A stretch of DNA of 23,313 nucleotides from a virus, in IMG/VR virus record IMGVR_UViG_3300032118_001249, positions 1 to 23,313 of that record; one strand, 5' to 3'. The translations under genes and the position numbers were made by a program. Below the pieces are notes generated by a model, which worked only from the letters and a program-made list of their open reading frames with translations, made no database searches and had not been told where the DNA came from. Below, piece by piece: positions 10 through 11,158 of the stretch; position 1 is the stretch's first letter; each line of letters opens with the position of its first letter.

Positions 10-2186
10 CGGACTTGGGACTGACTGAAACACTGCGGCGAATGCTGGGCAAGAGCCGGCCGCTGACCCCGCAGATGCGGGTAGCGGCCGCCAAGGCCGC
101 TCTGCGTGAGGCCCGTGAGCAGCTCGCTCTGGTCGCGCCCCAGCAGGCGAACCGGCCGATCTGGACCGATTGGTCAACCGCCAACGCGATCCAGAATGGG
201 CTGAAGAAGAACGAGTGGGTCTATTCGTGCGTCCGCAAGCTGGCCGACGCCATCTCCGCCGCCTCATGGTTCGCCGAGCAGCGCGTGGGCGAGGATGAAT
301 GGGAGCGCGATGACTCGCATCCGTTGAGCAACCTGCTGTCCCGCCCCAACCCCCAGATGAGTCGGCAGGACCTGTTCGAGCGGGCAACCTACCATCTGTA
401 TCTGGGCGGGAACTCAGTCTGGCACCTTGAGCGCAACGGGGCGGGCATCCCACAGACCATCGTGCCGCTGATGCCCGACCAGATCAAGCCCATACCCAGC
501 GGCCAGGGCCTCGAGGTGGCGCGCTACGAATACCGGGTGGGGAGCAAGAAGCAGCCGCTGGAGCCGCAGGACATCTGCCACCTGATGATCGCCGACCCGG
601 GCGACCCGTTCTGGGGCTTGGCGCCGCTGCGAGCCGCGATGCAGACGGTTGACACCGACGTTGAGGCGGTGCGTTGGAATAAGGTGAGCCTCCAGAACCG
701 CGCCGTGACTGATGGGCTGTTCGCGTTCAAGCACCCGCTGACTACCGAGCAGTGGGAAGACGCGCAGGAGCAGGTGAAGGAGCAGCACCTCGGAGCCGAC
801 AACGCGCATATGCCCTGGGTGCTGGGCGCGGATGCGAATTACACGCCGATGAGTTTGAGTCCGGTCGAGATGGATTTCCTCAGAACCCGCATGTTCAACG
901 TCGCTTCGATATGCAATGTCTTCGGAGTTCCGGTCGTGCTGATAAGTCAGGAGCGCACGACCTTCAACAACATGGAAACGGGCCGAAAGATTTTCTGGGA
1001 AGACACGGTCATCCCGCGACTCGACGACCTGGGCGACGCGCTTGACCTGCGGCTCTGCCCCTATTGGAACCCCGAAGGGCTGAAGGACGCGAGCAAGAAG
1101 ACACTGCGGATCGGCTACGACGTGTCCGCCATCCCAGCGATGCAGAGCATCTGGCGCGAGAAGGTTGACTCGGGCCGCAAGCTCTGGGACATGGGAGTGC
1201 CGTTCAACGAGGTCAACCAGCGGCTCTCACTGGGCGTTGCCGCGGTGGAGGGCGGGGACTTGCCCTGGGGCGGAAGCAAGCCGCCGACGCTGGGGTACGC
1301 GCCGATCGCCGAGCCACCGAAGTCATTGGTGGGAGCGACAGAGCTGAAGTCCGGCATGGCGGGGGCCGAGAAGGCCGCCTACTGGAAGGCCTTCGACAAC
1401 GATCGGGCGCGCTGGGAAGATCGGATCGCCAAGCAGATAGCCGAGCTATTCGGGGCCGAGGGCGAGGCGGTGGCGGCGGCCTTCGAGGAGCAGGGCAAGG
1501 CGGCCATCGCTGGCGCGATCGAGCGGGGCAAGACGCACTGGTCGGCCTGGCTGGTCCAGGCCTACAAGCAGATGATCATCCACTTCGGGACCTTGGAGGG
1601 GCGGCGGATCATCAGAGCGATCCCGAAGAGTGCGATGCCCGAGTTGCAGCGCAAGGACCTGGAGTACAAGGAGCGCGCTTGGAACTTCGACTTCGACGAC
1701 CCGGCGGTCGAGCACTTTGTTCGCACGGAAACGGCCGCGAAGGTCACGCTGATGACGGAGACGACCAAGGACGCCATCGCCGAGGGCGTGGCTGAGGGGC
1801 TATCGCAGAACGAAGGCGCCGCCGACATCGCCGCGCGCATCAGGGCCTCCTATGCCGACTGGGCGGGCGAGGGCGATTCTCCGCTTGACCGCAGCCGTAG
1901 CTTCCTGATCGCGCGGACCGAGGCGGGCGCGGCGGTGAACTTCGGGCACAACGAGGGGGCCCGCCAGATTGAGGAAGAGACGGGAGCGACGGTGCTGAAG
2001 GAATGGATCAGCAGCCGCGACGATAGGGTGCGGGACTCGCACGCGGCGGTAGACGGCGAGATTCGGCGCATGCCTGATGCGTTCTCCAATGGCCTGCTGT
2101 ATCCGAATCAGGCAGGCGCACCAGCGGAGGAACGATGTAATTGCCGGTGCGGGTGCGCGCACCTAGTGGAGGGCTTGAGCGCGTGA
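6..2186 (+). CDS. Portal protein fused to a Mu F/SPP1 gp7-like head morphogenesis domain
   Basis: A 726-residue protein starting at GTG 6. Residues about 1-430 look like an HK97-family portal, the ring at one capsid vertex through which DNA enters. Signs are NEWVYSCVRKLADAIS near residue 70, the segment HPLSNLLSRPNPQMSRQDLF, and a C-terminal portal part with VFGVPVVLISQERTTFNNME. After a linker, residues about 573-726 match the phage Mu F-like minor head family: RTETA...LIARTEAG, the motif WISSRDDRVRDSHAAVDGE and the terminal cysteine motif ERCNCRC. Mu F-like proteins are normally separate minor capsid proteins encoded just after portal; here no stop separates them. The 3' end overlaps the next gene in a GTGA junction. 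The portal call is firm, and the fusion is directly visible as one open frame. Confidence 0.93.
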   Translation: MTDLGLTETLRRMLGKSRPLTPQMRVAAAKAALREAREQLALVAPQQANRPIWTDWSTANAIQNGLKKNEWVYSCVRKLADAISAASWFAEQRVGEDEWERDDSHPLSNLLSRPNPQMSRQDLFERATYHLYLGGNSVWHLERNGAGIPQTIVPLMPDQIKPIPSGQGLEVARYEYRVGSKKQPLEPQDICHLMIADPGDPFWGLAPLRAAMQTVDTDVEAVRWNKVSLQNRAVTDGLFAFKHPLTTEQWEDAQEQVKEQHLGADNAHMPWVLGADANYTPMSLSPVEMDFLRTRMFNVASICNVFGVPVVLISQERTTFNNMETGRKIFWEDTVIPRLDDLGDALDLRLCPYWNPEGLKDASKKTLRIGYDVSAIPAMQSIWREKVDSGRKLWDMGVPFNEVNQRLSLGVAAVEGGDLPWGGSKPPTLGYAPIAEPPKSLVGATELKSGMAGAEKAAYWKAFDNDRARWEDRIAKQIAELFGAEGEAVAAAFEEQGKAAIAGAIERGKTHWSAWLVQAYKQMIIHFGTLEGRRIIRAIPKSAMPELQRKDLEYKERAWNFDFDDPAVEHFVRTETAAKVTLMTETTKDAIAEGVAEGLSQNEGAADIAARIRASYADWAGEGDSPLDRSRSFLIARTEAGAAVNFGHNEGARQIEEETGATVLKEWISSRDDRVRDSHAAVDGEIRRMPDAFSNGLLYPNQAGAPAEERCNCRCGCAHLVEGLSA

Positions 2187-3109
2187 TACTGCTGGTCGGA
2201 CTGGACGGGTACGACTACCGGTGGGGCGGTCTGCTTGAGCAGGCGGGGTACAGCGTCGCGCCTATGCACGCGCCTGTGCCGCTGAGCTGGGTTGCCTGGA
2301 ACACGATCGGGACGGGCATCGATGCGAAGTCGTGGGGAGTGAGCGACAATCCGGTGGACTATCTGGAGTTCAACCGCGAGCGAATCCCGCGGCCGCCATA
2401 CCTATGGGAGCGGATGGCCGAGAGCGGGCAGGCGGCGCTCGTCGCGAACTGGCCCTTCGTGCTTACCCCGCAGCCGTTCTACGGCACGCTGGTCTGCGGC
2501 TACCCGGCGCCGGAGACGCACTACGTCATACCCGCCGACCAGGCGGGCCGCTGGGACTACCGGGAACTTGACCTATCGGCGCGATATATGCAGGCGAGCG
2601 AGGAACAGAAGGCGCGGCTACTGGCGTTGCCTGCGCGCGAGCATCTGCGGAACGCTACGGTGTTGCGCAATCGTCTGGCCCTGAGAGTGATAGAGCAGGC
2701 GCAGGAAACCGCCCCGGCGATGACCGCCCTCGGCATTATGAACTGCGACCGCCTCAGCCACTATGCCAATGCGGTAATGCTGGACGAGCAGTTCCGCGCC
2801 GAGCTACTGGTGGGCCTGACGGAGGCGGTTGCCATGGTTGAGCAGGCGTTGCAGCCCGAGTGCACGATCCTGTTCTCCGACCACGGGCTTGACCTTGAGG
2901 CGCCGGCGCGAACGGGTGGCCCTGGATATACGACCCACGCCATAGAGCTTCCCGACAGCATGACCGGAGTGCTGGCGCTGAGGCAGGTGGGCTACAAGTT
3001 GCCGTCAATGACGGCGCAGCAGATAGATGTAGCGCCGATGGTGTTGAATCGGCTGGGCATCGGCCACGACTTGGCGGGCATTGACAGGTCGGTGCCCCAG
3101 GGAGACTGA
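2183..3109 (+). CDS. Alkaline-phosphatase-superfamily hydrolase, type I phosphodiesterase/nucleotide pyrophosphatase-like
   Basis: Start is GTG 2183 (GTGA overlap with the portal stop, GGAGGG about 10 nt upstream), giving 308 residues; the open frame extends further upstream inside portal but nothing supports that. The complete metal and nucleophile set of the family can be read off: D8 in VGLDGYD, nucleophile S35 in the segment SWVAWNTIGTG followed by SWGV (matching the T-x-P-x-x-x-T-x-x-TG...HGv region of nucleotide pyrophosphatases), D189 and H193 in CDRLSH, D233-H234 in FSDHG, and H252 in TTHAI. Such enzymes hydrolyse phosphodiesters, phosphomonoesters or related esters using two metal ions. 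No signal peptide or membrane segment is seen. The substrate is unknown. Its position between portal and protease is unusual for a virion assembly module; it may work with the sugar and methyl transfer genes downstream. Confidence 0.85.
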   Translation: MILLVGLDGYDYRWGGLLEQAGYSVAPMHAPVPLSWVAWNTIGTGIDAKSWGVSDNPVDYLEFNRERIPRPPYLWERMAESGQAALVANWPFVLTPQPFYGTLVCGYPAPETHYVIPADQAGRWDYRELDLSARYMQASEEQKARLLALPAREHLRNATVLRNRLALRVIEQAQETAPAMTALGIMNCDRLSHYANAVMLDEQFRAELLVGLTEAVAMVEQALQPECTILFSDHGLDLEAPARTGGPGYTTHAIELPDSMTGVLALRQVGYKLPSMTAQQIDVAPMVLNRLGIGHDLAGIDRSVPQGD

Positions 3110-5745: not shown

Positions 5746-5770
5746 ATGACCCCGCCTCCTGTGGGGTCAT
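5746..5770 (+). terminator. Hairpin just after the capsid gene
   Basis: ATGACCCC (5746-5753) pairs perfectly with GGGGTCAT (5763-5770) around a 9-nt loop, starting 9 nt after the capsid stop. No U-run follows directly, so it may stabilise the capsid mRNA 3' end or act with the next hairpin rather than terminate alone. Confidence 0.55.
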
Positions 5771-5771
5771 G

Positions 5772-5812
5772 TGGGGCCGGCCGGGCTTTCCTCCTTTCAC
5801 CGGCCGGCCCCA
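5772..5812 (+). terminator. 13-bp GC-rich hairpin with a CCUCC-containing loop, just before the methyltransferase start
   Basis: Bases 5772-5784 (TGGGGCCGGCCGG) pair without mismatch with 5800-5812 around a 15-nt pyrimidine-rich loop. The loop contains CCTCCTTTC, the same as the usual anti-Shine-Dalgarno tail of bacterial 16S rRNA. The ribosome binding site GGAG (5814-5817) of the next gene lies immediately 3' of the stem and is complementary to CTCC in the loop. It could attenuate transcription or lower translation of the methyltransferase; it lacks a clear U-tract. Confidence 0.55.
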
Positions 5813-5825
5813 TGGAGATAACACA

Positions 5826-6590
5826 GTGACAGACGCGGCTGATGCAACCGGATACATGCAGCGGCTTCAGCGGACCTGGGAGGCGTGGGCGCAGGCCGAC
5901 CCTTTATGGGCGATCTGCACGGTCCCAGCGCTGACCGGGAGGCGCTGGGGGCCGGAGCAGTTCTTCGCTACCGGCACGGCCCACGTCGCCGAGCTGATGG
6001 GCTACCTAGATAGTCTGCTCCCCAACCTGCCGCGCGGTGCGGCGCTGGACTTCGGCTGCGGCGTGGGCAGGCTGACGCAGGCGCTGTGCGCGGAGTTCCG
6101 CCAGGTCTGCGGAGTAGACGTGTCGCCCACCATGATAAGGTTGGCCGACGAGTTCAATCGCTGGCCCAACCAGTGCCGGTATCTGGTGAACGACCAACCC
6201 GACCTGAGTAGCTTCGAGGGCGGCGAGTGGGATCTGATTCACTCACACAACGTGCTCCAGCACATCGCGCCCGCGGCTACGGCGAGATACCTGGGTGAGT
6301 TCGTGCGCCTACTCACGCCGTATGGCGTCGCCGTGTTCCAACTCCCGTGTCGTCCTCGTTTTCGACCCGCTGGCTCGCGACCGTGGGACAGCTTGGATTC
6401 CTGGGGCGTCCCCGATGGAGGGCCCGTGAATGAGGATGGGCTGCAGCCCGCGATGGAGATGTATGGGATCGAGAAGCACGCCGTGATCGAGGTCATTGAG
6501 CAGGCCGGCGGCGAGGTGATCGAGGCCGCGACAGACCCGGCCCCGATTGTGGACTGGGAGAGCATCCGGTACGTAGTGAGGCGAGCATGA
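5826..6590 (+). CDS. Class I SAM-dependent methyltransferase (Methyltransf_11/25-like)
   Basis: Start chosen at GTG 5826, 8 nt after GGAG 5814-5817; the upstream ATG at 5769 falls inside the hairpin. 254 residues. The Rossmann-type SAM fold shows motif I LDFGCGVGRL near residue 75, the acidic strand-2 end in CGVDVSPTMIRLADE, and the post-motif DLIHSHNVLQHI, which typifies small-molecule, sugar or lipid methyltransferases more than DNA methylases. No DNA target-recognition domain and no DPPY-type motif is seen. It opens a run of four genes (three methyltransferases and a glycosyltransferase) joined by 4-nt overlaps, so the likely substrate is a sugar or glycan. The acceptor is not identifiable from sequence. 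Confidence 0.85.
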   Translation: MTDAADATGYMQRLQRTWEAWAQADPLWAICTVPALTGRRWGPEQFFATGTAHVAELMGYLDSLLPNLPRGAALDFGCGVGRLTQALCAEFRQVCGVDVSPTMIRLADEFNRWPNQCRYLVNDQPDLSSFEGGEWDLIHSHNVLQHIAPAATARYLGEFVRLLTPYGVAVFQLPCRPRFRPAGSRPWDSLDSWGVPDGGPVNEDGLQPAMEMYGIEKHAVIEVIEQAGGEVIEAATDPAPIVDWESIRYVVRRA

Positions 6591-7186
6591 CGGCGACAGA
6601 CGAAGTGCAGGATACACTCGACTTCTTGGCTACCCTCGGGGGCGCTTCGCGCATGGAGTGCGAGACGCGGGTGCGCTACGCGATGGAGGTGTCGCCGCCC
6701 GCCGTCATCGTCGAGTTGGGCGTGATGGTCGGGCAGGGACTGTGCTGCCTGGGTTGCGGGGCCCGGTTCGGCCAGGGCGCGCTGAGCTTCGGCATTGACC
6801 TGTTCGGGATGCGACCGAGCGGGCAGGGAGCAGCCTACGACAACCCCGCGAACATGGCGACGGTCAGGGGCTACATCGAGCGGTTCGGGCTTTCGGAGCT
6901 GGTGACACTCATGCAGGCCGATACTGCTGAGGCTGTGGCCCAGTGGGAGGAGCCTATCGGGCTGCTGGTGGTCGACGCGGGCCACGACTACGAGCAGGTG
7001 CTGGCCGACGCGAAGGCGTGGCTGCCGCACGTCGTGCCGGGCGGTCTGCTCCTGATGCACGATGCTCGGAACCCGGCATGGCCCGGCGTTGACCGGGTGA
7101 TCAATGAGGAGATTCTGCCGAGCGGTGAGTGGGACGACGCCGAGTTCGTCCCGCCGTTTTCGCGGTGGCTCAGGAGGAAGCCGTGA
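6587..7186 (+). CDS. Class I SAM-dependent methyltransferase (Methyltransf_24-like), first of two related genes
   Basis: 199 residues from ATG 6587, overlapping the preceding stop as ATGA. It shows a SAM-binding strand-loop IVELGVMVGQG near residue 41, a second strand FGIDLFG, and the segment LLVVDAGHDYEQVLADAKAW followed by VVPGGLLLMHDARN. The D-x-x-H-x-Y motif and the GG-x-x-x-x-HD motif fit the Methyltransf_24/cephalosporin hydroxylase-like group, whose members often act on sugars in surface glycan pathways. The next gene has the same architecture with clearly diverged sequence, suggesting an old duplication or two separately acquired relatives. Its target is inferred only from the adjacent glycosyltransferase. 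Confidence 0.82.
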   Translation: MTATDEVQDTLDFLATLGGASRMECETRVRYAMEVSPPAVIVELGVMVGQGLCCLGCGARFGQGALSFGIDLFGMRPSGQGAAYDNPANMATVRGYIERFGLSELVTLMQADTAEAVAQWEEPIGLLVVDAGHDYEQVLADAKAWLPHVVPGGLLLMHDARNPAWPGVDRVINEEILPSGEWDDAEFVPPFSRWLRRKP

Positions 7187-7761
7187 GCGTGCTTTCGGAG
7201 GAGATGCAGCGCCGCTGCGCCGAGGTGCACGGTGAGATCATTCCCGAGGAAGGCTTGCTGCTGGCCGAGTTGGCGGCGCAGGTGCCCAGTGATTACACCA
7301 TCATCGAGATCGGCGCCTACAAGGGCAAGAGCACTTGCTACCTAGCGGCGGGCGCGCAGGCGGGCGGCGGCGCCATCGTCTACAGCATTGACCTGTGGGA
7401 ACGGGCGCCCTGGCCCCAGTACGCGGATCCGGCGGTGCACCGGGCGTGGGAGGATAACATCGGATGCCTCGGGCTGGTGGGGCGGGCGATCGCCATCTGC
7501 GCCAGCTCGCAGGAGGCCGCGCAACTGGTGGACGCCAACGTCGGGCTCCTGTGGGTGGACGCCGACCACACCTATGAGGGGGTGCGGCGCGACGTGGAAT
7601 TATGGTCGCCCAAGGTCGCACTGGACGGCGTGATGGTGTTCCACGACGCGGCGACCGAGGACTGGGGGGTTGCCCGGGCGCTCCGGGACTGCCTGCTTGC
7701 GGAGGGCCGCTATACATCCGAGATTCTGCACGGGTGCGCCATCGTGAGGAGAGTACCGTGA
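7183..7761 (+). CDS. Class I SAM-dependent methyltransferase (Methyltransf_24-like), second of two related genes
   Basis: Start is GTG 7183, forming a GTGA overlap with the previous stop and preceded by AGGAGG at 7172-7177; the earlier in-frame ATG 7129 lies deep in the previous gene. 192 residues. Motifs are IIEIGAYKGKST (SAM loop), VYSIDLWER, LLWVDADHTYEGVRRDVELW and GVMVFHDA, in the same order and spacing as the preceding protein. The D-A-D-H-T-Y-E motif is typical of this family and may hold a divalent metal and SAM. Tight coupling to the upstream methyltransferase and downstream glycosyltransferase suggests one modification pathway. Confidence 0.84.
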   Translation: MSVLSEEMQRRCAEVHGEIIPEEGLLLAELAAQVPSDYTIIEIGAYKGKSTCYLAAGAQAGGGAIVYSIDLWERAPWPQYADPAVHRAWEDNIGCLGLVGRAIAICASSQEAAQLVDANVGLLWVDADHTYEGVRRDVELWSPKVALDGVMVFHDAATEDWGVARALRDCLLAEGRYTSEILHGCAIVRRVP

Positions 7762-9116
7762 GAGTTCTGGGTCACATGTACCACCTTGGCTGGGGCTGGG
7801 GTGGCGGAGTCGTGACGATGTGTTTGGTGCTGGAGGAACTCCGACGGCGCGGGCATTCGGTCGGCCTGATGCTGCAGCGCGGTGCCCTCAAGCCGACCCG
7901 TAGCCACGGGGCGCGGCAGTTCGGCATCACAGACGTATACTCGGCACCGTTGCCGGTGGCGAAACGTCGGCGCTACCAGGAGGCAGACATCATCATCACC
8001 CAGGGCGAGGCGACGACCGAGGCGCTGGCACTCTGCGGGGCCTACCAGAAGCCGCTCGCTCATATGATCCACGACGAGGGTCAACTCGCCCTTTACAAGG
8101 TCAAGCCAGCCCAGTGCCAACTCGCCCTCTACAACGCGCAGTGGGCCAGGGAGGCGGCGGAGCGCAAGGGGCGGGCCGACAACGCGATGGTGCTGTACCC
8201 GTTCGTTGAGCCCGCAGACTACCGCGTCGAGCAGACCGGCGACTGCATCACGCTGGTCAACTTGTGCGAGGAGAAGGGGGGGAAGCTGTTCTGGGAGCTG
8301 GCGCGGCTGATGCCGGGGCACAGGTTCTTGGGCGTTAAGGGCGGCTGGGGCGGACAGATCGTGCCCCAGAACCTGCCACCGAATGCCGAGGTCATGGAGC
8401 ACTGCCTGGACCCGCGGGATATCTACCGGCGCACCCGCATTGTCCTCGTGCCGAGCCAGGATCTGGGCACGCCGGGGATGCGGCACTGGACCGAGAGCTA
8501 CGGGCGCATCGGGATCGAGGCGGCGGCCAGCGGCATTCCCACGATCGCGCACCCGACGCCCGGGCTGGTGGAGTCGCTGGGGGAGGCAGGGATATTCGCC
8601 GATCGCTACCAGCCGGAGCAATGGATCGAGGCGATCGAGTTGCTCGACGACGCGGAACTGTACGCCGAGGTGTCGACTGCGGCGCTCAAGCGATCGAGTG
8701 AACTGGAGCCGACCGCCCAGATGGACGCGCTCGAGGCGGAACTGGTGCGGATTGGCGCAGAGTGGCGGGAGCGCGAGCGAGCGGCCCCGCGGCCGGGCGA
8801 TGCAATCATTCCGGCGATCAGGGAGGACAGAGAGGTGAAGGTGAGAGCTTTGCGGAGGCTGTCCGGGATAGCAAGCCGCGGCGACATAGTGAGCCTGCCC
8901 GCGCAACAGGCGCGCCATCTGCTGCGCCGGCGGTTGGTCGAGCTGGTAGAGGGTGCGGAGCCGACCGAGGCAGTGCAGCCGGAGGAGAACCAGGCGGACG
9001 GTCCGCGGGAGATCGCATCGGGCGTCACGATGACCTATAGGATCGGACGCGGGCCTTCCTTTCAATCCCGCGAAGAGGCCGAGGAGCATCATCGGGCCAC
9101 CGCAGGTAAAGGCTAA
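7758..9116 (+). CDS. GT4-type (GT-B fold) glycosyltransferase with a fused C-terminal phage domain
   Basis: Start is GTG 7758 (GTGA overlap, AGGAG 7747-7751 six nt upstream); 452 residues. Residues 1-340 resemble retaining GT4 glycosyltransferases: an N-terminal glycine-rich loop GWGWGGGVVT, an ELRRRGHSVG segment, and the nucleotide-sugar binding E-x7-E motif E246...E254 in TESYGRIGIE followed by AAASGIPTIAHPTPGLVES. It should transfer a sugar from a nucleotide donor. Residues about 360-400 (KVRALRRLSG, then RGDIVSLPAQQARHLL) resemble a small domain that many phages encode as a separate protein near the capsid gene. It is followed by an acidic linker and a short tail. The gene sits between capsid and connector, so capsid or tail glycosylation is a reasonable inference; host surface glycan change is the alternative. 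Confidence 0.85.
   Translation: MRVLGHMYHLGWGWGGGVVTMCLVLEELRRRGHSVGLMLQRGALKPTRSHGARQFGITDVYSAPLPVAKRRRYQEADIIITQGEATTEALALCGAYQKPLAHMIHDEGQLALYKVKPAQCQLALYNAQWAREAAERKGRADNAMVLYPFVEPADYRVEQTGDCITLVNLCEEKGGKLFWELARLMPGHRFLGVKGGWGGQIVPQNLPPNAEVMEHCLDPRDIYRRTRIVLVPSQDLGTPGMRHWTESYGRIGIEAAASGIPTIAHPTPGLVESLGEAGIFADRYQPEQWIEAIELLDDAELYAEVSTAALKRSSELEPTAQMDALEAELVRIGAEWRERERAAPRPGDAIIPAIREDREVKVRALRRLSGIASRGDIVSLPAQQARHLLRRRLVELVEGAEPTEAVQPEENQADGPREIASGVTMTYRIGRGPSFQSREEAEEHHRATAGKG
8835..9116 (+). CDS. Possible nested gene: stand-alone small phage head-region protein from an internal start in the glycosyltransferase
   Basis: GGGAGG at 8821-8826 lies 8 nt before an in-frame GTG at 8835. Translation from there gives a 93-residue protein starting M-K-V-R-A-L, exactly at the boundary of the conserved small domain. 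That domain is usually an independent short phage protein of unknown function encoded close to the capsid gene. The simplest reading is that the glycosyltransferase gene fused to, or ran into, the older small gene while its ribosome binding site was kept. Expression as a separate product is inferred. Confidence 0.45.
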   Translation: MKVRALRRLSGIASRGDIVSLPAQQARHLLRRRLVELVEGAEPTEAVQPEENQADGPREIASGVTMTYRIGRGPSFQSREEAEEHHRATAGKG

Positions 9117-9796
9117 TGGGCGCGTGCGTTGACAGGCTGAACTTGGCGATAGGCGAGGGTAGTAGCGCGGTCAGCGAACTGGACGCGGTGAAAGCTTACC
9201 TGCGCGTCGAGCACGAGGCCGACGACGACCAGATCACGGCGCTGATCGCCGATGCCAAGCAGATCGCCGACGACTTTCTGAACAACGCCTTCGAGGTTAA
9301 GCGCGCCTATATCGTCGTGTTGGCCGCGGCGGTCGGCGACATGGTCTATGTGGACGGTATGACCTTCCGAGTGGCCGCAAGCGCGCCGGCGACCCGCACT
9401 CAGGACGTGACCACTCAGGACTTCGCCATCGGGGCCGATGACGAGGAGACGGCCGAGAACCTCGCTGCCATCATCAACGACGAGATGTACGGGGCGCTCT
9501 ACGTGCTGGCGACGCAGGATAGCACCGAGATCGCGTTGACCTGGCGGCGGCCCAAGCGGGAGCCGGTGACTGCGTCCGAGGTGAGCACCAGCCTATCGGT
9601 GCGGGCGAGGCGGACGCAGGTTCCCATCCCGGCGGCAGTGCGGCGAGGAGTGCTACGCACCATCGCTCAGATGTACGACCAGCGCCAGGACGGAGTGGGT
9701 GCGCAGGCGATCAGCGGGCGGGGCTCGACCAGCTACGGGGCACCGCCGCTGGCTTACGCGATGTGGGCGCCGCATCGGAAACTGCCGGGGACATAA
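9116..9796 (+). CDS. Head-tail connector (gp6-like) with an inserted domain
   Basis: 226 residues from ATG 9116, overlapping the previous TAA as TAATG. The N-terminal helices (residues about 20-60, ELDAVKAYLRVEHEADDDQ, then ALIADAKQIADDFLNN) and C-terminal helix (residues about 170-195, IPAAVRRGVLRTIAQMYDQR) match the gp6-like connector family that docks under the portal. Between them, residues about 65-165 form a beta-rich insert with VGDMVYVDGMTF, FAIGADDEETAENLAAIIND and ALTW. I recognise this as a module usually seen in phage structural and adhesin proteins (G-D-x-V-x-V-x-G-x-x-F ... TA-x-NLAAAIN). The stop codon lies right beside the TnpB element, and the protein reads through to a natural-looking end. 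Confidence 0.8.
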   Translation: MGACVDRLNLAIGEGSSAVSELDAVKAYLRVEHEADDDQITALIADAKQIADDFLNNAFEVKRAYIVVLAAAVGDMVYVDGMTFRVAASAPATRTQDVTTQDFAIGADDEETAENLAAIINDEMYGALYVLATQDSTEIALTWRRPKREPVTASEVSTSLSVRARRTQVPIPAAVRRGVLRTIAQMYDQRQDGVGAQAISGRGSTSYGAPPLAYAMWAPHRKLPGT

Positions 9797-9880
9797 GATG
9801 CCCTTGCTCAGTACCAAGAGCTTGCAGCTAGGCGTAGATGCCCGCCGCGTTCGGCAGTCTTATGGCTGCCCGGCGGATGT
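9797..9880 (-). ncRNA. Candidate omega/reRNA region at the 3' end of tnpB
   Basis: TnpB guide RNAs overlap the tnpB 3' end and run out through the right end. Here the tnpB tail can fold into a nested hairpin (9842-9847 with 9871-9876 and 9853-9857 with 9866-9870, 11 bp with a 5-nt bulge), followed on the - strand by a 4-bp hairpin at 9821-9806. The guide would come from the end of the connector gene below 9797. Exact ends are unknown; this is inferred from the family. Confidence 0.4.
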
Positions 9881-10907
9881 TCTCCGCCGCGATGGTGTCC
9901 GCGGGGCCAGAGAACCCGCACTGGACACAGGAGAAGATGCTTTGTTCGGGACGGTTAGCCTTATCGGTATAGCCGCAGGCAGGGCAGGTGCGAGAGGTGT
10001 TGCGCGGGTCTACCGCGATCACCGTCACGCCCGCGCGCCTGGCCTTGTACTCGATAAAGCTCCGCAACTGTGCGAACGACCAAGAGGAGAGAGTGGCCCT
10101 CTGGGGTCGGCGAGCCGTAATCCGCGAGCGAATCCCTGTCAGTTCTTCCAGGGCGATTCCTCGCTTCGTGCCTTCGGCCGCGGCCACGATCTCCTTCGAG
10201 ATACAGTGATTCTCATGTCTCGCAAAGCGAGACTCTTTGCTGTGTCGTTTGCGCAGAAGGCGCTTCGCAGACTTCGTGCCCTTCTTCTGCAACTTGCTTC
10301 GCAGGCGGCGGTGACGATGGCGCAAGCCGTTGACGACCGCGCCGGAGTAGACTCGGCCGTCCGAGTCCGCGGCGATGTTGGCCACCCCCATGTCAACGCC
10401 GAGGAAGTCACCCACGTCCCCCGGTTCCGGGCCTTCGACGTTACAGACGGCGAACAGATACCATTTGCCCTCGACGACAGCGAGGTCCGATTCGCCCTGC
10501 TGGGTGGTGAGCAGAGCGCGCTGGCGGTCGCCGCAGACGAAAGGAATGGTCTGGCGGCCAGCGACCGTCCAGATCGAGACTTCCGAACTGGAGAGCCTCC
10601 AGCGCAGGATGCGCGAGTCGTAAGAGATAGCTCCGGCAGGCCGAAAGATGCGTCTGCTCTTCCGGTCCAGTTTGTACGCATCCGCGACCTTAGCGATGCA
10701 ACGCACGATCACCTGGGCGGAGAGTCCGAACTGCCCTCGCAAACAGTGATAGGTAAGCCGGTGCAGTGCGAACTGCCCGAATATACGCTCTCGCCAAGCT
10801 ACCTCCGAGATGTGGTTGCACGCGGCATTGGCCTTCTCCAGTGTATCGCGGAGAGCCTTGGCTTGCTCGCGGGATGGCAGAAGTTTCACCTGGGCGGTCA
10901 ACTTCAT
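9828..10907 (-). CDS. tnpB: TnpB RNA-guided nuclease (OrfB), complete
   Basis: 359 residues, ATG complement at 10905-10907. The RuvC-like triad is present: D172 in FLGVDMGVANIA, E254 in IALEELTGIR, and D337 in GPADTIAAENI. The zinc ribbon is intact with CPAC (308-311) and CVQC (327-330). The N-terminal MKLTAQVKLLPSREQ segment and the basic KLQKKGTKSAKRLLRKRHS stretch are typical. The last motif is D-T-I-A-A where most relatives have D-x-N-A-A. Known TnpB proteins cut DNA guided by an RNA made from the element's right end, which favours element retention. Here it lies antisense inside a late phage operon, with its own promoter. Local GC looks lower than in neighbouring genes, in keeping with separate origin. 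The protein looks functional. Confidence 0.93.
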   Translation of the reverse strand: MKLTAQVKLLPSREQAKALRDTLEKANAACNHISEVAWRERIFGQFALHRLTYHCLRGQFGLSAQVIVRCIAKVADAYKLDRKSRRIFRPAGAISYDSRILRWRLSSSEVSIWTVAGRQTIPFVCGDRQRALLTTQQGESDLAVVEGKWYLFAVCNVEGPEPGDVGDFLGVDMGVANIAADSDGRVYSGAVVNGLRHRHRRLRSKLQKKGTKSAKRLLRKRHSKESRFARHENHCISKEIVAAAEGTKRGIALEELTGIRSRITARRPQRATLSSWSFAQLRSFIEYKARRAGVTVIAVDPRNTSRTCPACGYTDKANRPEQSIFSCVQCGFSGPADTIAAENIRRAAIRLPNAAGIYA

Positions 10908-10913
10908 AGTTCA

Positions 10914-10942
10914 AGTATAGCAGGGATGGTGGCGTTAGTCAA
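10914..10942 (-). promoter_or_regulatory. Sigma70-type promoter of tnpB, predicted leaderless
   Basis: On the - strand TTGACT (10942-10937) and TATACT (10919-10914) are separated by exactly 17 bp. The ATG begins 6 nt after the -10 box (10907), so transcription would start at or within one or two bases of the start codon and give a leaderless mRNA. The TTGAC of the -35 box is also the candidate insertion target, so the promoter may be completed by the insertion site itself. Confidence 0.7.
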
Positions 10943-10969
10943 GCCATTGGCATTGTGTGAGGGCATCAC

Positions 10970-11158
10970 GTGAGGACCATTCGGGGCCATGACATACAGC
11001 GGCTGGCAAATGACACAGGCAGGACCGTGCCGATCCCGCTGTCGAGGTACAAGAGCGGACTACCTGGGCGGGTGTACCAGTGCAAGCACTGCGGACTCGT
11101 GCTCGCGCCCGCGCTGATGCGGGAGCACCTACGGAGAGCACACCGAATAGTCAGATGA
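10970..11158 (+). CDS. Small C2H2-type zinc-finger protein
   Basis: 62 residues from GTG 10970, with GAGGG at 10959-10963 six nt upstream. The C-terminal half holds a C-x2-C...H-x4-H finger: YQCKHCGLVLAPALMREHLRRAH. The rest is basic and polar. Single-finger miniproteins occur in phage genomes, usually with unknown roles in DNA or RNA binding or protein contact. It is the first phage gene after the TnpB element and overlaps the next reading frame as ATGA, so it belongs to the structural operon. No more precise function can be given. Confidence 0.65.
   Translation: MRTIRGHDIQRLANDTGRTVPIPLSRYKSGLPGRVYQCKHCGLVLAPALMREHLRRAHRIVR

What the first reader, a model, noticed from the sequence alone, without database searches (positions are those of the whole stretch)
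9797..10942. Solo TnpB element inserted antisense in a late phage operon, with a leaderless promoter that overlaps its likely target
The TnpB has an intact RuvC triad and zinc ribbon. Its promoter is textbook (TTGACT, 17 bp, TATACT) and puts the transcript start at the ATG. The TTGAC of the -35 box is the probable insertion target, so the site itself may complete the promoter; if this holds more widely, insertions would be selected for expression. The element sits cleanly between genes, so the phage operon is not broken, but late read-through makes antisense RNA across tnpB.
Basis: partly seen in the sequence, partly recalled or inferred. Interest (0 to 1): 0.6.

Follow-up and report, generated by a model that had tools for sequence, protein, structure and literature searches.

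The report
Phage TnpB element at a start codon
A small mobile gene for an RNA-guided DNA cutter sits exactly at the seam between two phage head genes without breaking either; its promoter lies wholly inside the element, so the proposed link between landing site and promoter is wrong, but its relatives land at gene start codons six times more often than chance.

Summary
The TnpB, the sigma-70-like promoter and the clean inter-gene position are real. In 38 family members with a mapped left end the -35 lies 45-122 bp inside. The motif at the left end is TCAC (TCAT in empty relatives), i.e. GTGA/ATGA on the other strand: here the stop/start overlap of two head genes. The downstream gene keeps its start codon; the element's right end (ATAA) supplies the upstream gene's stop. 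The right end is a canonical omega-RNA 3' end. In 51 of 64 members the -10 box ends 6-9 nt before the tnpB start, predicting a leaderless mRNA. Across the family 21 of 57 sites (37%) look like start codons against 6% of controls, including genuine starts of tsaD, aroK, leuC, acrB-like and response-regulator genes. Some left ends carry an outward Shine-Dalgarno that might rescue the gene. It is a new IS200/IS605-type solo TnpB; start-codon occupancy with possible translational rescue is the novel part, cause unproven.

The parts
9793..10969 (-). whole element, 1177 bp, left end at 10969, right end at 9793
   Evidence: junctions against empty sites in L060/L061; right end by homology to omega-RNA 3' ends
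9828..10907 (-). tnpB, 359 aa, RuvC D172/E255/D337, zinc ribbon
10937..10942 (-). -35 box TTGACT, inside the element
10914..10919 (-). -10 box TATACT, 6 nt before the tnpB ATG (predicted leaderless start)
10908..10969 (-). left end: 62 nt, lacks the hairpin found in most relatives
10970..10973 (-). target/TAM TCAC in host DNA (GTGA on +; ATGA in relatives)
9793..9905 (-). omega-RNA 3' scaffold: 3' end of tnpB plus right end; fold z = -3.0
9800..9821 (-). right-end hairpin GCTCTTG-GTACTGAG-CAAGGGC
9858..9863 (-). ATAAGA inside tnpB, complementary to the terminal TCTTAT (9793-9798); covarying pairing in relatives
9773..9792 (-). flanking DNA expected to be the guide: GTCCCCGGCAGTTTCCGATG
   Evidence: inferred from ISDra2 biology (PMC8612924); sequence
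9116..9796 (+). upstream head-tail connector gene; its stop TAA (9794-9796) is supplied by the element's right end in place of TGA
10970..11158 (+). downstream 62-aa gene with C..C..H..H-like motif; start codon kept as GTG (ATG in relatives)
10959..10963 (+). GAGGG, outward Shine-Dalgarno-like, 6 nt before the GTG, brought by the element (duplex -6.1 kcal/mol)
9797..9824 (+). left arm of a 28-bp imperfect terminal inverted repeat (75%)
10940..10967 (+). right arm of the same inverted repeat

Best explanation
The feature is a solo-TnpB insertion sequence of the IS200/IS605 type, 9793-10969, inserted antisense at the stop/start overlap (RTGA) of two late phage genes. Shown: it sits 3' of a TCAY motif on its own strand with no target duplication. 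Because TCAY is the reverse complement of RTGA, the downstream gene keeps its start codon, while the right end (ATAA on +) gives the upstream gene a stop in the original frame; both ORFs stay intact. tnpB has its own internal promoter whose predicted start is the ATG. Inferred: TnpB loads an omega-RNA made from the 3' end of its own transcript, whose guide is the flanking connector-gene DNA, and cuts empty sites (TCAT followed by the guide match) in sister or co-infecting phage genomes, so that repair copies the element in. Inferred: the leaderless start lets TnpB be made from its own promoter but not efficiently from longer transcripts.
For: Empty sites in relatives with 79-80% identical flanking protein. 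The family right end has a covarying terminal helix (GUAAAC/GUUUAC, GUCAAC/GUUGAC, GUCAUG/CAUGAC, CAUAAGA/UCUUAUG). Three copies in one MAG (L095, L104, L105) share sequence only from TTCAT onward. A relative (L077) carries a Y1 TnpA behind the same type of left-end hairpin and TTCAT. Catalytic residues are intact. L060 has TCAT followed by 18 of 20 guide matches. Promoter position is conserved.
Against: The window's left end lacks the hairpin of most relatives and instead has a 28-bp inverted repeat with the right end, so this copy may no longer transpose. No RNA or cleavage data. The predicted ancestral site (GTGA) differs by one base from the relatives (ATGA). TAM detection in relatives searched for TCAY, so the consensus is partly built in.
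Confidence: 0.85

Rival explanations
1. One reading: the element inserted next to TTGAC, and the target supplies the -35 box, so insertions are selected for tnpB expression.
For: The promoter is real and TTGAC-like targets exist in other TnpB elements (ISDra2 uses TTGAT, PMC8612924). In L016 the best -35 match lies in flanking DNA.
Against: Empty sites place 27 element bases beyond TTGAC; all 38 relatives with a mapped left end have the -35 45-122 bp inside.
Confidence: 0.02
2. This copy is a terminal-inverted-repeat element moved by another transposase with a 4-bp target duplication (ACAT/ACGT).
For: 28-bp 75% inverted repeat at the ends (2 of 20000 shuffles as good); ACAT and ACGT flank it with one mismatch.
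Against: Leaves two unexplained bases (AA) on one side. The right end is already fixed by homology to omega-RNA ends and the left end by the family TCAY. The inverted repeat could be a degenerate copy of the right end.
Confidence: 0.1
3. The copy is no longer a transposon but a fixed phage gene: TnpB with a constant guide acts as a homing-type or competitor-cutting device.
For: The canonical left-end hairpin is missing here and in other phage-borne copies (L016, L018, L025), while TnpB and omega-RNA look intact. TnpB gene drive is known in plasmids (PMC11870625).
Against: No conservation of this copy at this site in relatives: L060 and L061 lack it. Nothing shows activity.
Confidence: 0.35
4. 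The start-codon enrichment in the family is only survivorship: insertions elsewhere break genes and are lost, and RTGA start or stop codons are the commonest harmless TCAY sites.
For: Stop-codon-like sites are also enriched (26% vs 13%), and among sites not spanned by long ORFs the control start fraction rises to 13%.
Against: The observed start-like fraction among non-interrupting sites is 11 of 24; some left ends carry an outward Shine-Dalgarno, which survivorship of random insertions alone does not predict.
Confidence: 0.5

Closest known systems
ISDra2 TnpB (IS200/IS605, Deinococcus radiodurans; PMC8612924)
   Same: TnpB with RuvC and zinc ribbon, omega/reRNA from the right end, insertion 3' of a short motif without duplication, subterminal palindromes in most relatives
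   Different: target TCAY rather than TTGAT; no tnpA in this copy; tnpB predicted leaderless from an internal promoter; relatives often at start codons; detectable sequence similarity confined to residues 144-350
TnpB gene drive on plasmids (PMC11870625)
   Same: proposed cutting of element-free sister molecules
   Different: here in a phage genome and inferred only
Cas12f and TnpB-type proteins of known structure (9nzq, 8hr5)
   Same: closest solved sequences, E 6e-25 and 2e-20, over the RuvC/zinc-ribbon part
   Different: no CRISPR array; element-borne
TldR (nuclease-dead TnpB relatives of phages, PMC13418256)
   Same: phage-borne TnpB relative
   Different: RuvC triad intact here

Membership tests
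IS200/IS605 family (solo TnpB type) | TnpB with OrfB/zinc-ribbon and RuvC catalytic residues | tested here: met
IS200/IS605 family (solo TnpB type) | insertion 3' of a short target motif without target duplication | tested here: met
   empty sites L060/L061; one base differs from the relatives
IS200/IS605 family (solo TnpB type) | omega-RNA-type right end, overlapping the tnpB 3' end | tested here: met
   covarying terminal helix and hairpin; no Rfam family matched
IS200/IS605 family (solo TnpB type) | subterminal palindrome at both ends | tested here: inconclusive
   right end yes; left end of this copy has no clear hairpin, although most relatives have one and some solo copies in phages also lack it. 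It resembles an inverted copy of the right end. The copy is treated as derived and probably immobile
IS200/IS605 family (solo TnpB type) | Y1 TnpA in the element or in close relatives | tested here: met
   absent in this copy; present in relatives L070, L077, L085 (PF01797)
IS200/IS605 family (solo TnpB type) | RNA-guided cleavage at TAM + guide | not testable with these tools
   needs protein and RNA
IS607 family | serine-recombinase TnpA | tested here: not met
   relatives carry Y1 TnpA; no tnpA in this element
TldR | loss of RuvC catalytic residues | tested here: not met
   D172/E255/D337 present

The most novel reading that the evidence does not exclude
A TnpB transposon family whose target motif is the reverse complement of a start codon (TCAY = RTGA) preferentially occupies start codons, and carries in its left end an outward Shine-Dalgarno, in some copies brought next to the start codon by the transposon's own end hairpin, so that the gene it splits from its ribosome-binding site is still translated. 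Its own mRNA is leaderless.
Probability: 0.3. Interest if true: 0.75.

Novelty: new variant of a known kind. Interest (0 to 1): 0.5.

Why it matters
It shows how an insertion sequence can enter densely packed operons, phage late operons included, without breaking genes: the target is the translational seam itself. If left ends really restore translation, these elements would be mobile 5' leaders that swap the expression control of host genes (tsaD, aroK, leuC, efflux pumps). It also predicts a TAM (TCAY) for a compact TnpB subfamily, a natural way to separate TnpB synthesis from read-through transcription, and a testable case of TnpB homing between phages.

Tried and rejected
TTGAC as target: refuted by empty sites and family. 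Phage GenBank DNA comparison: no match, so empty sites came from IMG/VR. Rfam: no family. The 424-aa plus-strand ORF 9699-10973 through the element: no Pfam family, judged an antisense artefact. Left-end hairpin taken at first as an upstream omega-RNA: rejected, because the omega-RNA features are at the right end and L077 shows the hairpin before tnpA. Searches of the phyla of L102 (a Bacteroidia MAG) and L081 (a Pyrinomonadaceae MAG) added almost no copies. Literature: no paper found that links TnpB/IS605 targets with start codons or leaderless tnpB, but the library is open-access only and Meers et al. 2023 was not held.

Full report
What is there. The window is a 23.3-kb IMG/VR contig with a tailed-phage structural cluster: portal, prohead protease, capsid, several methyltransferase and glycosyltransferase genes, head-tail connectors, major tail protein. 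On the minus strand, 9828-10907, lies a 359-aa TnpB. Comparison with solved structures (closest 9nzq, E 6e-25) aligns RuvC residues D172, E255 and D337 and the CPAC/CVQC zinc ribbon. No tnpA is present in the element.

Ends of the element. A scan with the upstream connector protein found four relatives; L060 and L061 (79-80% protein identity) carry the same two flanking genes and no element. They read CCGGGAACATGAGGATC and CCGGGGACATGAGAATC, where TGA ends the connector gene and the overlapping ATG starts the next gene. The window reads CCGGGGAC|ATAAGATGCCC ... GGGCATCAC|GTGAGGACC. The element is therefore 9793-10969.

Right end and omega-RNA. Relatives end in a hairpin and a short terminal word. 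That word pairs with a word roughly 45-110 nt upstream, in or near the 3' end of tnpB, and the pairing is kept while both sides change: GTAAAC/GTTTAC, GTCAAC/GTTGAC, GTAAGC/GCTTAC, GTCATG/CATGAC, GTAATG/CATTAC, and CATAAGA/TCTTATG in the window. The window's 113-nt 3' region folds better than all 200 shuffles (z -3.0). This is the expected architecture of a reRNA/omega-RNA (PMC8612924), and it places the guide in the connector gene, GTCCCCGGCAGTTTCCGATG. L060 has TCAT followed by the same word with two mismatches in 20, so element-free relatives could be targets. That step is inference.

Left end, target and hairpin. In 95 loci a left-end hairpin was found, with a TCAY motif usually 11-16 nt (in some copies 19-23 nt) upstream; they represent 68 distinct sites. 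Because the search required TCAY, the consensus is partly built in. Independent support comes from the window's empty sites, from three copies in one MAG (L095, L104, L105) that share sequence only from TTCAT on, and from L077, a copy with a Y1 TnpA (PF01797, E 5e-41) behind TTCAT and the same type of hairpin. The window copy lacks this hairpin; so do phage copies L016, L018 and L025. The window's two ends instead form a 28-bp, 75% inverted repeat (2 of 20000 shuffles score as high). I have no firm explanation: a left end rebuilt from the right end is possible, and such a copy is probably not mobile by the usual route.

Promoter. Among 64 distinct upstream regions (the window and relatives with at least 50% identity), the best sigma-70 match scores 6.0 on average against 4.8 in shuffles, and in 51 the -10 box ends 6-9 nt before the start codon. 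Several copies with a larger distance (for example L089 and L162) have a Shine-Dalgarno-like stretch before tnpB instead (by eye). Bacteroidota-type copies have a TAnnTTTG box at a similar distance (by eye). Thus a leaderless tnpB is a family trait by sequence; no RNA data were available. A plausible benefit, from general knowledge of insertion sequences, is that read-through transcripts entering the element would not be translated into TnpB.

Start codons. On the host-gene strand TCAY reads RTGA. Of 57 sites with both ends mapped, 21 (37%) open an ORF of at least 60 codons with an in-frame stop within 15 codons upstream of the joined site, against 6.1% of 2208 control RTGA sites nearby (binomial p 7e-12, treating sites as independent, which related copies are not fully). 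Stop-codon-like sites are 26% against 13%. Pfam profiles confirm true starts: shikimate kinase, LeuC/aconitase, response regulator, AcrB family and SDR match from profile position 1-2 at protein residues 9, 8, 7, 4 and 7, and TsaD from position 2 at residue 25. Among sites not spanned by long ORFs, 11 of 24 are start-like against 13% of controls. Survivorship explains part of this; whether it explains all is open.

Possible translational rescue. The insertion separates the start codon from its native ribosome-binding site. In 12 of 52 non-Bacteroidota left ends a strong Shine-Dalgarno faces outward beside the hairpin (shuffles: mean 3.8, maximum 9 in 300 runs; opposite strand 2), mostly with about 8 nt from hairpin to start codon; none of 16 Bacteroidota-type ends has one, as expected for hosts that hardly use it. 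In copies without the hairpin the sequence lies directly before the start: window GAGGG at 6 nt, L025 at 6 nt, L018 at 3 nt, but not L016. Most ends lack it, predicted folds do not always leave it free, and the copies are related, so this is suggestive only.

Verdict. The element is a new IS200/IS605-type solo TnpB with target TCAY, probably retained by RNA-guided cutting of empty sites. The new point is the family's presence at start codons and the possible repair of translation. I found no report of it in the papers available, which cover open-access work only.

Noticed in passing
window 9797-9824 and 10940-10967: 28-bp imperfect terminal inverted repeat (75%), unusual for an IS200/IS605-type element; other members show left/right-end similarity mainly through their palindromic hairpins.
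   Followed up: partly
   Followed up: partly
window 5769-9116: Three methyltransferase genes and a glycosyltransferase gene lie between the capsid gene and the head-tail connector in the structural cluster.
   Followed up: no
L060 about 5842-6200: The small CKHC zinc-finger-like gene downstream of the insertion site appears partly duplicated in this relative.
   Followed up: no
genome G310 (locus L092), loci L173 and L176-L196: One genome holds at least 22 copies of this TnpB family, a good system for mapping ends and targets.
   Followed up: partly
L014, L022, L092: Left-end and right-end hairpins of the same element are nearly identical in sequence while differing between elements, suggesting co-evolution with one transposase.
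   Followed up: partly
window 2141-3109: 322-aa ORF between portal and protease without Pfam match; by eye it resembles phosphodiesterase/phosphatase-type proteins.
   Followed up: no
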